From the NCBI GenBank assembly GCA_024699425.1, contig JAILPP010000099.1, positions 1 through 36,732 of the forward strand: a stretch of 36,732 nucleotides of DNA, read 5' to 3'. Made by a program: the position numbers and the translations under genes. This document shows positions 18,456 to 26,302 of this stretch, one piece after another (position 1 is the first letter of the stretch; every line of letters begins with the position of its first letter). This stretch comes from Oscillospiraceae bacterium. Lineage in GTDB: Bacteria > Bacillota > Clostridia > Oscillospirales > Ruminococcaceae. The notes under the pieces are model-generated. The model was not told the origin of the DNA. It did no database searches and worked only from the letters and a program-made list of their open reading frames with translations.

Positions 18456-18899
18456 ATGGCTGAAATCAGAGTTATGACCGTCGCCGACTATGACGAAGTG
18501 TACGACCTCTGGCTGCATACGCCCGGCATGGGACTGAATACTATGGATGACAGCAGGGAAGGCATTGCAAAGTATCTGAAACGAAATCCCTCGACCTGCT
18601 TTGCTGCTTTTGCAGATGGGAAGCTCATCGGCTGCATTCTTGCAGGACATGACGGGCGGAGGGGATATATTTATCATACTGCCGTCCTGCCGGAATTCCG
18701 AAAGCAGGGAATTGCACGCTCATTGGTAAAACATTCCATGTCTGCATTGGAACAAGAGGAAATTCATAAGGTCGCACTGGTGGCATTCGGGCGCAATGCG
18801 TTTGGAAACGGCTTCTGGGAGAAAATCGGCTTTACCGTCCGTGACGATCTGGTCTATCGGAATAAAAGTATTCATGATCTGGAACGAATTGATACATAA
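18456..18899 (+). CDS. GNAT family N-acetyltransferase inside the his operon
   Basis: [55 protein letters not shown]. Confidence 0.9.
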
Positions 18900-18910: not shown

Positions 18911-19666
18911 ATGCTCGCAAAACGAATTATCCCCTGTCTGGACGTGCGTGACGGCAGGGTCGTCAAGGGCGTGAATTTCGAGGGCATCCGTGAAGTCGGT
19001 GATCCCGTGGAATGCGCCGCAGAGTATAACAAACAGGGCGCTGACGAGATCGTGTTCTATGACATTACTGCATCCCATGAAGGGCGCGGTGTGATGCTTG
19101 ATGTGGTGCGTGAGACTGCAAAGCGTGTATTCGTACCGCTGACTGTCGGCGGCGGTATCAAAACCGTGGACGATATCCGTGAAACGCTCCGTGCAGGTGC
19201 AGACAAGGTGAGTGTCAATTCGCAGGCAGTGAAAAATCCGCAGCTCATCAAGGACGGTGCGGATATTTTCGGGAGTCAGTGCATCTGCGTCGGCATTGAT
19301 GCAAAGAAAACACCTGTCGGCAACTGGACAGTCTATATCAACGGCGGACGTATTGACATGGGAATTGATCTGCTTGACTGGGTGAAACAGGTCGAGCGCC
19401 TTGGCGCAGGAGAAATCTGCCTCAATTCCATCGACACGGACGGCGTGAAGGGCGGCTTTGATCTGCCCATGCTCAAAACCGTTGTCGATTCTGTAAGCAT
19501 TCCGGTCATTGCATCGGGCGGTGCGGGAAAGCTGGGCGATTTTGCCGAAGCTTTTCAGAAAACGGACTGCTCCGCAGCACTTGCCGCATCGCTGTTTCAT
19601 TTCAGGGAACTGACCGTGCAGCAGGTCAAGGACGACTGCCGTGCAAAAGGCATCATCGTGCGCTGA
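18911..19666 (+). CDS. hisF: Imidazole glycerol phosphate synthase, cyclase subunit
   Basis: [52 protein letters not shown]. Confidence 0.97.
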
Positions 19667-20373
19667 TGCTTTATGCGACCTATTCCGAATGCGAGGAGAC
19701 GATCGTCCGGGCAGGAATTGATGCGATCCGTGCGTATTTCCGAACTGCAAATAAGCAGAAAAAGCGTGATCTTCTGTTTTGTCTCGACAAATATCTTGAC
19801 CCGTGGTTCGGTTATAATCTGCCCTATGCAGAGGAAATTTTCTGTTTTTTGGAAGAAATTGTTCTTTCATCGGGAGAATGCGTGGACATTGCAGAGGATG
19901 CGCTGAACCTGATCGGCAGCTACGGTCACACAACCGATATACTGGAGGAGCATCTTGATCTCGTACCGGAATCGCTGCAATTTTATGCGAAAATTGTCAT
20001 TGCGGAATCGAAAGGAGTGCTTTATATGGGATTTGCACTGAATGATCTCGACAGGTATTTCATCAAGTCCGATCTCATCCCCGCCATTGCGGTGGATGTG
20101 AAAACGGGGCAGGTGCTTATGCTTGCCTACATGAACAAGGAAAGCCTGCGTAAAACGCTGGAGACCGGTTATACATGGTACTGGTCCCGTTCCCGTCAGG
20201 AGCTTTGGAACAAGGGCGCTACGTCCGGACATCTGCAAAAGGTCGTATCCATTTTTGCGGACTGCGACAATGACACGCTGCTTGTCAAAGTCGAGCAGAC
20301 AGGTGCAGCTTGCCACACGGGGAATTATTCCTGCTTCTTTACGCAGATTTACGGCGAACCTGAAATGAAATAA
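19666..20373 (+). CDS. hisI: Phosphoribosyl-AMP cyclohydrolase with ~120-aa unknown N-terminal region, or two alternative starts (HisI alone 20026-20373)
   Basis: HisI motifs ([42 protein letters not shown]) are confined to the C-terminal ~115 aa. AAAGGAG at 20011-20017 precedes an in-frame ATG at 20026. Confidence 0.88.
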
Positions 20374-20408: not shown

Positions 20409-23400
20409 TCAGTATTCCCATCGGATCGGATGTTCGATCTCTTTTCCGTTCAGACGGAACAAATGTCTGCCATTGACGAGCTGTATTTTTTCCGGCGGCG
20501 CAAGTGTCTCTTTTCCGAGTGCATTGTTGATCTTTACACGCTGATCGGAATTCAAAACATAAATCGAAACACATGGTTCATAGCCGCCAAAGGCAAGTGC
20601 CTGCGGTCCTGTCCCTACGATGCTCAGTGTGATGCTTTCAAAACGAATGTCAGATTCTCCGTACAAAGTTCCCAGACCGGTAAGATAATCCGAGCGCATA
20701 TTGAAATCCAGTCCTGCTTCTACTACCCTGACAGCCGCTTTTTTGCCCCGCAGAGAACCGATGCCACAGATGTATTTTCCCGATGCATAGTAATTCACGG
20801 CACTCTTCCTGACGGATACATCTGCGGTATTCTCCATTGAACCGATCAGCAGTCCCGAAGATACGGAGAAATCTGCCTCAATATGACAGCAGTCCAGTGC
20901 AAGCGATACTTCACCGTTCAGTGAACCGATCCCGACACAAGTCTCTGTTTTGCTGTTCAGATTAAATTCTCCGCGGTTAATGTGAATCTCACCACCAAGC
21001 CCTGAACCAATGCAGACACCTTTCTGCCCTCGGCTGTTGATATTGATCGGACCATCCTGCTCAAACACCAGTTCTCCGTGACGGGCATTCTGATGATTGC
21101 CGATTCCGTAGAAATCCGAGGCATTCAGCTCGATGTTCAATGCTCCGTCGCCCTCAATGCACAGGCGGGAACTTTCCGGCACCTGTATACCGCTGCCGTA
21201 CAGCGTATTCGTCCCATACAGCACAAGTGTGACATCACAATACTCACCAAGTTCAATGCACGGACGGTTCTTTACATTGGAGAACCATGCATCTTCCAGT
21301 GCAATGCGCCCACTGTAACCCGCTTCTACCCGCAGGTGGATCTCCGATTTCATCTGCGGTGCGCTGATGATCGCAATATCCTTGTAGATCATTCCCTCCT
21401 GCCCGACCACAATATCCGTACAGCCGTCCTTCATCAGTCTTGCAAGGGAAACACGGCTTGTTTTGCCTGCAATGTAAATCTTCTTGACCGTTCCGTCAAT
21501 GCGTTCCTGATAATACTGGCGTATCTCGTTGCGGCGCTTCTCATCAATCTGTGCCGAGATCACCGCTGAGGGTCGGGCAGTGTAGAAGCCCTGAATCAGA
21601 TCTGCACCGAGATGTATTACCGTCTGCAATTCCTCCGCCGTTTCCACACCCTCCGCAAGCGCAAGAATGTGATTATCATGACAGAAATCAATGATCTCAC
21701 GGACAAAATGCTGCTTCTGCATCTGATTTTCAATACCACTGAGCAGAGAACGGTCAATTTTGACGTAATTCGGCATATACCGCAATAAGTTGCTCACATT
21801 GGAATATCCCGTACCGTAATCATCAACGGCAATGTCGATCTGCTGCTTGGCAAAGAACGCTTTCATTGCTTTCAGATCGGCATCCTGCAACTCTGCCTCT
21901 TCCGTCAGTTCCACAACGACCTTGCGTGAATATTTTTTGAGCAGTACCGACATTTCAGAAAATGCACTTTCTGCCATACGAACACCGGGAATGCTGTTGA
22001 TAAACACCCTTGCATCTCCGAAAGTTTCCTCGTTTTTTTCCAATACACGGAGAACATTCAGGAATGTTGCACTTTCTACATCGGAAAGACGTTCCTGCAT
22101 TGCAGCATATTTGATGATGTTCAGCGGTGAAATGCGCTTTTCTGTTTTAGACCGCATCAGCGCCTCATAAGCAAAAATCTCCCCGTCCACGGTGCTGACG
22201 ATCGGCTGAAAATGATATTCCAGCAAGTTTTCATCCAGAATGGTGGAAACAAGCTGATACTCCGCTTTTTCCTCCTGATTCAGACTTTCATAGGCATGAT
22301 TGGATACGGAAAATTTGCTGTTTCTGATGCGCTCTAAATGCTCCTGCATCTGTTTCAGGACAAGATTGCGCCGCAGTACTTCAAATCCTCTGCAAACCGA
22401 ACCGATCCACCGACGATAGGTTTCGTCGTAGCACTGCGTTGCTTCTGCGTAACGCACCACGGAATAACCAAAACACTCGGTTTCAAAAAACAAGGGCGTA
22501 AAGAACCATGCGGTGGGGCGGTCGGAATCTGCATACAGATCTGGCAGCATTTCCGAAGAGGAAAACTTCTGATCGAAACCTGCCGTATTATTGCGGTGGT
22601 CGCTGTAATAACGGATCGCATGGATCATCTGTTCAGGATAGCCTTCATTCGGGACGTGAATGCTCTGCCCGACATACTGCCAGTCAGAGGCTATACAAAG
22701 ATGAAATTCCCCGATTCCTTTCAACTGATACACATAGGAGTACACAGTGTTCAGAAATTCCGGAAGCGATGTCTGCATAATCAGGTTTTCGTCCATCATG
22801 TTGAAAACGGAACTGTAGCCTTCCTCGGAAATATCTGTCCCCCATGTTTCACGCCGTATGCAGTAATGCGGCATATCCGATTCCTGACACCCACAGCTTT
22901 CTCCAAACAGCAGGTGAGGTTTGAGTTTGAAGGAATCCGGCATTTCTCCCCGCATCTCCGCCTGCAAAAAACGGAACGCATACTCACCGAATTCCTCCGC
23001 CGGAATCCATGCGGAAGTCAGGGAACGGGGACTGGTCTGCCCCTCATAGGTCGAATCGTAACCGACCACGAGGATATCCTCCGGCACACGGATGTCATGC
23101 TCTTCAAAGACTTTACAAAGTCCGATCGCCATCTGGTCATTGGCACATGCAACCGCATCCGGCAGCTTGCCGTGCTGGGAAAGAAGCTGTTCCGCACACA
23201 AGCCGCCGCTTTGATACCAGAAATCACCGTAAAGGATACGCTGTTCCGCAACGGGAAGATCATGTGCTTTCATTGCATCAAGATACCCCTGCAGCCGTTC
23301 CTTGGAATGCTTGTGCCATTTTTTACCGGATACAAATGCAATGTCCCTGCACCCGTGATGCTCAATGAGGTGGGAAACAAGTTCATACTCCGCCGAATAG

Positions 23401-23747
23401 CAATCCGTGCAGATGCTCGGAAACAATTCACTTTCTTTTTCAATCACGACAATTGGCTTGTCAAAGACCTTTTTCAGGTGCTGTTCCAGCTTTTCCGTTG
23501 CGTGTTCTGTCTGAATGCTGTCTTTTAAGATCACCGCGCCATCAAACTGTGCAGGATTCATCAGTGAAAAAATATTGGATTCACCCTGTTCACGCTCTGC
23601 TGTATCCTGATACTTACGGTACATGGAAAAAATACAGACATCAAAACCGGAAGAAAATGCCGTTTTCAGAAAACCACTGATAAAGCGGTTCTGATATGCT
23701 TCGTCAGCCTGCCCGACAAACAGTGCGATCCGTTTCTTTTTATCCAT
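20409..23747 (-). CDS. LacI/PBP1-like sensor + EAL c-di-GMP phosphodiesterase + C-terminal beta-helix-like repeats
   Basis: N-terminal Peripla_BP_3-like region (KRIALFVGQADEAYQNRFISG, ACANDQMAIGLCKVFEEH, ILVVGYDS) with no HTH; EAL motifs YEALMR, FINS, VVELTE, AVDDYGTGYSN, VKIDRSLL, ALAEGVET, IQGFY; C-terminal GIGSLNG-type repeats. Start at 23747 (MDKKKRIALF, preceded by AAAGGA). Confidence 0.88.
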   Translation of the reverse strand: MDKKKRIALFVGQADEAYQNRFISGFLKTAFSSGFDVCIFSMYRKYQDTAEREQGESNIFSLMNPAQFDGAVILKDSIQTEHATEKLEQHLKKVFDKPIVVIEKESELFPSICTDCYSAEYELVSHLIEHHGCRDIAFVSGKKWHKHSKERLQGYLDAMKAHDLPVAEQRILYGDFWYQSGGLCAEQLLSQHGKLPDAVACANDQMAIGLCKVFEEHDIRVPEDILVVGYDSTYEGQTSPRSLTSAWIPAEEFGEYAFRFLQAEMRGEMPDSFKLKPHLLFGESCGCQESDMPHYCIRRETWGTDISEEGYSSVFNMMDENLIMQTSLPEFLNTVYSYVYQLKGIGEFHLCIASDWQYVGQSIHVPNEGYPEQMIHAIRYYSDHRNNTAGFDQKFSSSEMLPDLYADSDRPTAWFFTPLFFETECFGYSVVRYAEATQCYDETYRRWIGSVCRGFEVLRRNLVLKQMQEHLERIRNSKFSVSNHAYESLNQEEKAEYQLVSTILDENLLEYHFQPIVSTVDGEIFAYEALMRSKTEKRISPLNIIKYAAMQERLSDVESATFLNVLRVLEKNEETFGDARVFINSIPGVRMAESAFSEMSVLLKKYSRKVVVELTEEAELQDADLKAMKAFFAKQQIDIAVDDYGTGYSNVSNLLRYMPNYVKIDRSLLSGIENQMQKQHFVREIIDFCHDNHILALAEGVETAEELQTVIHLGADLIQGFYTARPSAVISAQIDEKRRNEIRQYYQERIDGTVKKIYIAGKTSRVSLARLMKDGCTDIVVGQEGMIYKDIAIISAPQMKSEIHLRVEAGYSGRIALEDAWFSNVKNRPCIELGEYCDVTLVLYGTNTLYGSGIQVPESSRLCIEGDGALNIELNASDFYGIGNHQNARHGELVFEQDGPININSRGQKGVCIGSGLGGEIHINRGEFNLNSKTETCVGIGSLNGEVSLALDCCHIEADFSVSSGLLIGSMENTADVSVRKSAVNYYASGKYICGIGSLRGKKAAVRVVEAGLDFNMRSDYLTGLGTLYGESDIRFESITLSIVGTGPQALAFGGYEPCVSIYVLNSDQRVKINNALGKETLAPPEKIQLVNGRHLFRLNGKEIEHPIRWEY

Positions 23748-23860: not shown

Positions 23861-26257
23861 TCAGAGGAGAGGATGCTGTGAAAATTCCCAGCTTGTCTCG
23901 AACGCATCCCAGTCTTTCTTGCTCAGTTCAATATTTTCTCTGACAAGCCGTGCAATCTCGGCATTTTCTTCATAGATAAACGGAAGCGACCTGATGTCAT
24001 TTGCCTGAATGTTCATCGTCGGATTCAGAAGTTTCAGAAAAAAACGTGATACTGTACTGCACAAAAAAGCGAGAATATATTCCAGCGAATCCTCATCGGT
24101 AAAAATACAGGAGCCTGCAACATCAAATAAAAATCCCTCCGGACTGTAACGGAATCCCGGTGTGATCGCAATAAACGTCCATGCGATCGAACGGCGAAAA
24201 TAATACTCTCTGTTCTTGAGCCGTCCGCCAGCGCTGCTCTTGTTCAGCGCTTTGTGGAAATCCTGCAATTCTCTTCCGTTGTCTTTATAATTGACAACAT
24301 TCTCATGATTGCCGTACCATTTCCTGTAACCGCCGCCCTTGTGATAGGGAAACCATTTCTTTCCGCTTGCCTGTGCGGTTTGCATATCGGGGGCATGAAA
24401 ACAGATATCGTGATAATTTATCTCGTACCATTTGCGGACAAATCTGTTATTGTCCGAAGTGGTCATTCCCTGACGGGGATTTGCAACTTCCCTGAGCTTC
24501 ATGCCTGAAAACAGGGAAAGGGTATGATCGGAAGCCTGATAGACATAAGGATGCCCCGGAATCCGCAGAAAATCCTGCTTTGTTCTGTAACAGGGAAGGG
24601 GACGGGAAAGAAATGCCATGCGTTTTTCCTCGGTTTTGCTGTATGCTCTCAGATCCATATAAGTGCTTTGATACCCGGAAATGTCGCTTTTGCGCATGAC
24701 GAATGCCGCCGCCTGCACGATCGTCCCGACCTCTCCCGCATCAAACGCATTGGCTCCCAGATGAACAAGGTTTACCACATCATGCAGTAACAGCAGACTT
24801 CTCAGCTTCACAAAACGATACAGAAACATCCACGAATGCATGGTAATCATCGCATAGAATCCATGCGGTGCAGTAAGCTGTCCGCAGCGTTCGATAAAGC
24901 AGGCAAACAGATCGCTTTTGCTGTCGGGGAAATGCTCTCTGACATATGCGGAAAGTTCCGTATGCATTCCGGAAACGCCCATATAAGGCGGATTTGTTAT
25001 CACGACGGAGTATTTCTGTGTCAGCATTTCGCCGATGCGCCGCAGCATGGTTTTCTGCTGTCCGCTGCTGTCTGCGATTTGTTCGATCTCCTCGAAAAAT
25101 TCGTTTGTAAGCTCCTTCAGAGAACCAATGCTTTCCGCATTCGGGAAGATTTCCCCCACATCTGCAATGTCTGCAAAATTCGCAAGATTCAGCCGCAGAT
25201 CACCGATTTTCAAAATCTCCGCATGATACTCTCTCGCTTTCATCATCAGCGCAAAACCCGCAAGCTGATACGCCCGTCTGTCAATATCCAGCCCGAAAAG
25301 ATTCTTTTGCAGAATAGACACCGCCGCCTCCTGTTCCGACCAGCCGCAGGAAAGATAAATGTCCATCAGCACATCAAAAGCATAGACCAGAATATGCCCG
25401 CTGCCCATGCAGGGATCTATAATCCGTATCTGTTCGGGACAGAGACTGCGGTATTCCTCCCGCAATGCCTCCATTTTTTCCTGAACATCCGCCTGCTGAT
25501 GCGGTTCATCAAGATAGTACAGCCAATCCGCAGTTTGCGGCTTTCCGTGTCCCTCAGCCCAGAGTCTGCCGAGAGAATTTTCAACAAGGTAGCGCACCAC
25601 CCAGTCCGGCGTGAAAAGCTGTGTTGCTGTCGGAATGGATGCCGCAGGAATTTTGATATTGCGCCGCAAATCTGCGTAGACCTGATCTTTTAATTCAGCG
25701 TTGTAGTACTGATAAAGCCAGCCGATGATCTGCACCTGATCCCGCCATTCCTCCTCTGTAATCTCCAGAACCATGCGTCCCACAACGCTGTCCGCCCGCA
25801 GGAGATCATCGGGAAAGAGCAGCTCTGCCCAGCCGTCAATCGGCTCAAACAGCTCCGGCATATACTGATGCAGCGCATTGCACTGTGAAAGCAGCAAATA
25901 TCTGTATTGCGCTGCGTTGTCCTGCGCTTCCTTGAGGATTCCGGGTTTGAAGTCACCGTTCTCATCCGAGAAAATACGAACCGTTTCCGGAAGAAAACCG
26001 TTCACTTCCATATACCGCAAAGCCGTGAAACGGCTGAACCACATATATGCCGCTTCTTCCATCGTCTGCGCAAACCCATTGCGGCGGATGTGTGAAAGCA
26101 GTTGACTGCGCTGTTCTGTCTCCGCAGGAGTCAGAGGGCGATCAGGTTCTGTTTCGCCGTCAGGTGTGATCGAATAAAGATCTGCCCGCTGTGACACAGA
26201 ACGAATGAGCATCGTTCTTGCTGCGGCAGCAAAATGTCTGAGTGCTGATTTATTCAT
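23861..26257 (-). CDS. pglX: PglX-like (BREX-type) adenine-specific DNA methyltransferase, apparently C-terminally truncated
   Basis: N-terminus MNKSALRHFAAAARTMLIRSVSQRA; motif I IIDPCMGSGHILVYAFDVL; motif IV VITNPPYMGVSGMHTELSAYVREHFPDSKSDLFACFIER; ends at SKKDWDAFETSWEFSQHPLL. Start at 26257 after AAAGGAG. Confidence 0.8.
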   Translation of the reverse strand: MNKSALRHFAAAARTMLIRSVSQRADLYSITPDGETEPDRPLTPAETEQRSQLLSHIRRNGFAQTMEEAAYMWFSRFTALRYMEVNGFLPETVRIFSDENGDFKPGILKEAQDNAAQYRYLLLSQCNALHQYMPELFEPIDGWAELLFPDDLLRADSVVGRMVLEITEEEWRDQVQIIGWLYQYYNAELKDQVYADLRRNIKIPAASIPTATQLFTPDWVVRYLVENSLGRLWAEGHGKPQTADWLYYLDEPHQQADVQEKMEALREEYRSLCPEQIRIIDPCMGSGHILVYAFDVLMDIYLSCGWSEQEAAVSILQKNLFGLDIDRRAYQLAGFALMMKAREYHAEILKIGDLRLNLANFADIADVGEIFPNAESIGSLKELTNEFFEEIEQIADSSGQQKTMLRRIGEMLTQKYSVVITNPPYMGVSGMHTELSAYVREHFPDSKSDLFACFIERCGQLTAPHGFYAMITMHSWMFLYRFVKLRSLLLLHDVVNLVHLGANAFDAGEVGTIVQAAAFVMRKSDISGYQSTYMDLRAYSKTEEKRMAFLSRPLPCYRTKQDFLRIPGHPYVYQASDHTLSLFSGMKLREVANPRQGMTTSDNNRFVRKWYEINYHDICFHAPDMQTAQASGKKWFPYHKGGGYRKWYGNHENVVNYKDNGRELQDFHKALNKSSAGGRLKNREYYFRRSIAWTFIAITPGFRYSPEGFLFDVAGSCIFTDEDSLEYILAFLCSTVSRFFLKLLNPTMNIQANDIRSLPFIYEENAEIARLVRENIELSKKDWDAFETSWEFSQHPLL

Positions 26258-26302
26258 GACACTTCTCCTTTGTGGCATCTGTACTTCAAAAAACAAGAAA
26301 AA

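What the first reader, a model, noticed from the sequence alone, without database searches (positions are those of the whole stretch)
20409..23747. EAL phosphodiesterase with LacI-type sensor and a C-terminal beta-helix-like repeat domain
The 1112-aa protein joins a LacI/PBP1 ligand-binding domain (no HTH, no signal peptide, no TM), a linker like those in LacI-GGDEF proteins, an EAL domain with all recognisable catalytic motifs, and a ~360-aa tail with about seven GIG-type turns (GIGNHQ, CIGSGLGG, GIGSLNG, LIGSMEN, GIGSLRG, GLGTLYG, AFGGYE). GIGS-rich beta-helix repeats are typical of secreted or surface clostridial proteins. On a predicted cytoplasmic c-di-GMP enzyme they would be a novel sensory or scaffolding module.
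Basis: partly seen in the sequence, partly recalled or inferred. Interest (0 to 1): 0.7.

Follow-up and report, generated by a model that had tools for sequence, protein, structure and literature searches.

The report
Cytosolic c-di-GMP phosphodiesterase with adhesin-like tail
A rumen Ruminococcus-type bacterium has an internal signalling enzyme that probably destroys the messenger c-di-GMP, senses a small molecule at its front end, and carries at its back end a seven-turn beta-helix related to parts of surface adhesins; this tail is an uncatalogued domain shared by dozens of related enzymes, and its job is unknown.

Summary
The gene lies on the minus strand (23747 to 20409) and encodes 1112 aa: LacI/PBP domain, GAF-like segment with a long helix, EAL domain with an intact catalytic set, and a 377-aa tail. 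AlphaFold models the tail as all-beta (pLDDT 92.5). Its seven IG turns are about 28 residues apart, and their glycines are invariant across 26 divergent relatives. It is not one odd protein. Of 40 distinct full tails, nearly all from one bacterial family, 39 follow an EAL directly in the same reading frame; the fortieth is cut by a contig end. Of 31 members of this EAL clade in the sampled family, 29 carry the tail and two lack it. N-termini vary (LacI, LacI+degenerate GGDEF, membrane+degenerate GGDEF, short helix). No Pfam model matches the tail. Profile comparison places it with the N-terminal part of secreted GIGGG beta-helix (Beta_helix_3) surface proteins (hhalign 98.7%, E 4e-16; reversed and permuted controls 1.5% or less). 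High cysteine content and membrane-anchored homologues indicate a cytosolic location. Most likely it is a structural or binding module coupled to the EAL, with the EAL-proximal half most constrained. Sensing versus scaffolding is unresolved.

The parts
20409..23747 (-). whole gene, 1112 aa, ATG start at 23747, stop 20411-20409
   Evidence: orthologues align from residue 1
22884..23747 (-). residues 1-288: LacI/PBP1-type ligand-binding domain without HTH
   Evidence: Peripla_BP_3 E 1.9e-29, Peripla_BP_1 E 2.3e-16; CcpA/PurR core structures
22308..22826 (-). residues 308-480: GAF-like segment ending in a long helix (442-475)
   Evidence: secondary structure of the full-length model only; inference
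21558..22250 (-). residues 500-730: EAL domain, catalytic set intact (E528, N584, E613, E616, D642, D643, K663, E699, Q719)
   Evidence: Pfam E 7.3e-48; alignment to active EALs; these residues invariant in orthologues and in tail-bearing relatives
21348..21542 (-). residues 736-800: junction helix and N-terminal cap of the tail
   Evidence: conserved in orthologues as strongly as the EAL (0.74); low confidence in the model up to about residue 755
20583..21347 (-). residues 801-1055: beta-solenoid with seven IG turns (882-1054)
   Evidence: model pLDDT over 90 for most residues; invariant turn glycines; motif test
20412..20582 (-). residues 1056-1112: C-terminal strands and cap, least conserved part

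Best explanation
This is a cytosolic c-di-GMP phosphodiesterase. A small molecule, probably a sugar or other solute, binds the N-terminal LacI/PBP domain, and the signal passes through a GAF-like segment and a long helix to the EAL domain, which hydrolyses c-di-GMP. The C-terminal tail is a fixed seven-turn parallel beta-helix, a cytosolic offshoot of the GIGGG beta-helix otherwise found in secreted Clostridia surface proteins. It was acquired by one EAL clade and then kept behind several different sensory front ends. It most likely acts as a structural or binding module on the EAL (EAL packing or oligomerisation, or docking of a partner or ligand), with the EAL-proximal half doing the essential work and the distal half acting as a rod. 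Shown here: the domain content, the intact catalytic residues, the recurrent EAL-tail fusion, the homology to secreted beta-helices, the conservation gradient. Inferred: catalytic activity, ligand, cytosolic location, and the tail's role.
For: EAL catalytic residues intact in the window protein and in all 39 tail-bearing relatives, gaps at sequence ends aside. 39 of 40 distinct full tails directly follow an EAL; the fortieth starts at a contig end. 29 of 31 EAL-clade members carry the tail in the family sample. N-termini differ: LacI; LacI+GGDEF; two N-terminal TM+GGDEF; soluble GGDEF; short helix. GGDEF signatures upstream are degenerate in every GGDEF-bearing member read (RGFQEF, SYKEF, TGNEF, TDDEF, GGDVF and so on), so the proteins look phosphodiesterase-only. 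Tail model pLDDT 92.5, pTM 0.89, all-beta. Homology to secreted beta-helices: hhalign 98.7%, E 4.2e-16; reversed control 1.5%, five permuted controls 0.4% or less; HMM hits down to 2e-17 on signal-peptide/SLH proteins that carry PF18889 with no hit on reversed or shuffled sequences. Cysteine 2.9% in EAL tails against 0.9% in the secreted domains, as expected for a reducing cytosol. Orthologue identity is 0.68-0.74 from the junction to rung 3, like the EAL (0.74), then falls to 0.42-0.53. Across the wide family the invariant tail residues are nearly all glycine, which argues against a catalytic site.
Against: Two members of the same EAL clade have no tail (L185, L186), so the tail is not needed for every EAL of this type. 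The full-length model gives no confident placement of tail against EAL (pTM 0.42). Foldseek against the PDB finds no significant match for the tail (best E 0.013, TM up to about 0.3), although the top matches are mostly right-handed beta-helices. Nothing shows an interaction or a ligand.
Confidence: 0.6

Rival explanations
1. The tail is a second ligand sensor: the cytosolic beta-helix binds an internal carbohydrate (storage glucan or imported oligosaccharide) or a metal ion and tunes the EAL, like carbohydrate-binding beta-helices outside the cell.
For: Secreted relatives belong to beta-helix surface proteins, and the related type Cthe_2159 binds cellulose and acidic sugars (PMC6712302). The EAL-proximal rungs are strongly conserved and hold conserved charged residues in the LacI-EAL orthologues (R889, H890, D898, R906).
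Against: No non-structural polar residue is invariant across the wide family. No Cthe_2159 Pfam match. No ligand data.
Confidence: 0.2
2. The tail is a localisation or scaffold module that docks the phosphodiesterase to a cell-envelope or type IV pilus machine, giving local c-di-GMP control.
For: It is kept behind very different N-termini, including membrane-anchored ones. The same genome encodes a PilB-type ATPase with an MshEN domain next to a prepilin-peptidase-like gene, a plausible c-di-GMP receptor, and type IV pili serve cellulose adhesion in ruminococci (PMC13234629).
Against: No conserved gene neighbour shared by all tail-bearing genes was found; no interaction data.
Confidence: 0.15
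3. The tail is a functionally neutral relic of a gene fusion with an adhesin gene.
For: Distal rungs are poorly conserved and two clade members lack the tail.
Against: Retention in 29 of 31 clade members, a constant seven turns over deep divergence (19-61% identity), and EAL-proximal conservation equal to that of the catalytic domain.
Confidence: 0.05

Closest known systems
EAL-domain c-di-GMP phosphodiesterases (PF00563; for example BlrP1, RocR)
   Same: Same EAL fold by sequence, and complete metal and catalytic residues
   Different: An uncatalogued C-terminal beta-helix directly behind the EAL, and a LacI/PBP front end
LacI/PBP-GGDEF proteins of Ruminococcus
   Same: Homologous LacI/PBP sensor without HTH; such a gene lies immediately downstream of the orthologue in R. 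flavefaciens L014, L015 and L018
   Different: Opposite predicted output (EAL instead of GGDEF) and the added tail
Beta_helix_3 (PF18889) GIGGG surface proteins of Clostridia
   Same: Homologous N-terminal region (GI-VPE cap, IG turns): hhalign 98.7%
   Different: Those proteins have signal peptides, SLH or other surface domains, GIGGG turns and few cysteines; the EAL tails are cytosolic, have seven turns, are cysteine-richer and fall below the Pfam threshold
Cthe_2159 (PF14262) carbohydrate-binding beta-helix
   Same: Beta-helix fold class (literature, PMC6712302, PMC9210967)
   Different: No Pfam match in the window protein; extracellular

Membership tests
EAL-type c-di-GMP phosphodiesterase (PF00563) | EAL domain above Pfam cut-off | tested here: met
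   163.4 bits against cut-off 31.3
EAL-type c-di-GMP phosphodiesterase (PF00563) | Complete metal-binding and catalytic residues | tested here: met
   E528, N584, E613, E616, D642, D643, K663, E699, Q719 align with active EALs and are invariant
EAL-type c-di-GMP phosphodiesterase (PF00563) | Hydrolysis of c-di-GMP to pGpG | not testable with these tools
   needs an enzyme assay
LacI/PBP1 ligand-binding domain (PF13377) | Domain above Pfam cut-off, HTH absent | tested here: met
   103.4 bits against cut-off 26.5; PurR alignment begins at PurR residue 58
Beta_helix_3 (PF18889) | Match above Pfam cut-off | tested here: not met
   no match in the window protein or in the 24 relatives scanned
Beta_helix_3 (PF18889) | Homology to proteins that carry it | tested here: met
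   hhalign 98.7%, E 4e-16, with negative controls
Right-handed parallel beta-helix fold | Significant structural match to solved beta-helices | tested here: inconclusive
Cthe_2159 (PF14262) | Match above Pfam cut-off | tested here: not met

The most novel reading that the evidence does not exclude
An adhesin-type carbohydrate-binding beta-helix was brought into the cytosol, fused once to an EAL clade, and now reads an internal glycan or partner to gate c-di-GMP breakdown, so that one enzyme senses two inputs (LacI domain at one end, solenoid at the other).
Probability: 0.15. Interest if true: 0.75.

Novelty: new variant of a known kind. Interest (0 to 1): 0.55.

Why it matters
It defines an uncatalogued C-terminal domain of c-di-GMP phosphodiesterases that is widespread in rumen and gut Ruminococcaceae-type bacteria, and it documents that a beta-helix typical of extracellular adhesins also lives in the cytosol on a signalling enzyme. 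If it regulates or localises the EAL, it opens c-di-GMP control of fibre adhesion in cellulose-degrading gut bacteria to direct testing. A dedicated Pfam-type model would relabel many 'EAL domain-containing proteins'.

Tried and rejected
Glycine autocorrelation in the single sequence is not significant. An early impression that the tail is obligate in this EAL clade was rejected: two clade members lack it; the 'one change' tree came from tail-first sampling. Full-length AlphaFold gives no confident domain packing (pTM 0.42). PilZ was not found in the genome, which is only 66% complete. The c-di-GMP-I riboswitch search is uninformative because its controls did not ring. Conserved neighbourhood: no gene neighbour is shared by all orthologues; the LacI-GGDEF neighbour occurs in a subset only. 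Literature searches found no paper on a beta-helix behind an EAL, with the limit that only open-licence papers are held. An enzyme role for the tail was considered and judged unlikely, as invariant residues are nearly all glycine. Export was considered and judged unlikely: no signal or TM in this protein, TM-anchored homologues whose EAL must be cytosolic, and cysteine content.

Full report
What is there. The gene runs on the minus strand from ATG 23747 to the stop at 20409 and encodes 1112 aa. Pfam finds Peripla_BP_3 (residues 125-285) and EAL (504-726) and nothing above cut-off behind the EAL. The LacI/PBP part aligns with CcpA and PurR cores and lacks the HTH. No TM or signal segment was found by a hydropathy scan. 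Between LacI and EAL, residues 308-475 have a GAF-like strand and helix order ending in a long helix; this rests only on the full-length model and is an inference. The seven quoted turns exist and exceed chance, although glycine autocorrelation of the single sequence alone would not have been convincing.

The tail. AlphaFold with 24 related sequences gives an all-beta model at pLDDT 92.5 and pTM 0.89, with repeated strands between the IG turns. Foldseek finds mostly right-handed beta-helix proteins at the top, but none significantly; handedness could not be measured. Across 26 tails, the others 19-61% identical to the window's, all seven turn glycines are invariant and nearly all other invariant positions are glycine. 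The number of turns is therefore constant, unlike a variable stalk, and there is no sign of a catalytic site.

Distribution. Close full-length relatives (63-71% identity in the best segment) come from Ruminococcus flavefaciens strains and rumen MAGs. With a tail profile, 21 of 149 genomes of the same family (18 of 124 genera) have a match. A wider profile finds full tails in the family and in one genome of another family of the class, which holds two. Of 40 distinct full tails, 39 directly follow an EAL in the same frame, and the fortieth begins at a contig end. The EAL catalytic residues are intact in these 39, apart from one sequence with gaps at three positions. N-termini vary: LacI; LacI plus GGDEF; N-terminal TM segments plus GGDEF; soluble GGDEF; or only a short helical segment. 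The GGDEF signatures read in these proteins are all degenerate, so the proteins look like phosphodiesterases only. The window's own genome has a second member, a degenerate GGDEF-EAL-tail protein on contig 56, among 11 EAL matches.

Origin. A search with the EAL domain alone shows 31 clade members at 290 bits or more in the family sample; 29 carry the tail and two do not. Of the next tier of EALs, six were checked and all end just after the EAL. The tree is compatible with one gain and two losses; a first tree with a single change reflected tail-first sampling. The wide tail profile also hits, weakly but clearly, the N-terminal region of secreted proteins with signal peptides, SLH domains and Pfam Beta_helix_3 repeats. 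Profile-profile comparison gives 98.7% and E 4e-16, against 1.5% for the reversed alignment and 0.4% or less for five permuted ones. Reversed and shuffled sequences give no HMM hits. The secreted domain boundaries were chosen with the tail profile, which is a mild circularity.

Where it works. Cysteine content is 2.9% in EAL tails against 0.9% in the secreted domains, several homologues are anchored by N-terminal TM segments with the EAL necessarily in the cytosol, and the window protein has no export signal. The tail is therefore most likely cytosolic.

How it probably works. A ligand binds the LacI/PBP domain; the signal passes to the EAL, which hydrolyses c-di-GMP. In the orthologues the tail is as conserved as the EAL from its junction to the third rung (0.68-0.74) and then falls to 0.42-0.53. 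The simplest reading is that the EAL-proximal half contacts the EAL, a partner or a ligand, and the rest is a rod. Whether this is packing or oligomerisation, docking, or a second sensory input is open. A possible downstream target in this genome is a PilB-type ATPase with an MshEN domain next to a prepilin-peptidase-like gene; type IV pili mediate cellulose adhesion in R. albus and are expressed in R. flavefaciens (PMC13234629). In three R. flavefaciens loci a LacI-GGDEF gene follows directly, which could form an opposing enzyme pair.

What is known. EAL enzymes with PBP-type sensors are noted as a class whose solutes are unknown (PMC8846402). No paper found here describes a beta-helix behind an EAL. 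The finding is a new variant of a known kind: an uncatalogued accessory domain on a known enzyme class.

Noticed in passing
L132:2632-5199 (+): A flagellin (Flagellin_N and Flagellin_C in Pfam) carries a GIGGG-type beta-helix related to this tail in its central variable region.
   Followed up: partly
L014:9387-11318, also L015 and L018: A LacI-GGDEF gene lies immediately downstream of the LacI-EAL-tail gene on the same strand in three R. flavefaciens loci, suggesting an opposing cyclase and phosphodiesterase pair. It is absent from the window.
   Followed up: partly
L185:1228-3915 and L186:1222-3900: Two members of the same EAL clade end about 15 residues after the EAL, without the tail; natural controls for a tail deletion.
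   Followed up: yes
window 23861-26296 (-): An 811-aa Eco57I-type adenine methylase directly upstream of the gene, with no obvious restriction partner next to it.
   Followed up: no
window 19666-20373 (+): The hisI-like protein has an N-terminal extension of about 120 residues before its recognisable part (by reading, not searched).
   Followed up: no
window 18456-18899 (+): A small acetyltransferase-like ORF sits inside the histidine operon between the hisA-like and hisF-like genes (by reading, not searched).
   Followed up: no
G746 (L134:1928-5287, L135:1921-5268): A genome of another family of the class holds two LacI-EAL-tail proteins close to the Ruminococcus ones, which may be horizontal transfer.
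   Followed up: partly
L187:1324-3003 (+), window genome contig 5: PilB-type ATPase with an MshEN domain beside a prepilin-peptidase-like gene: a candidate c-di-GMP receptor in this genome.
   Followed up: partly
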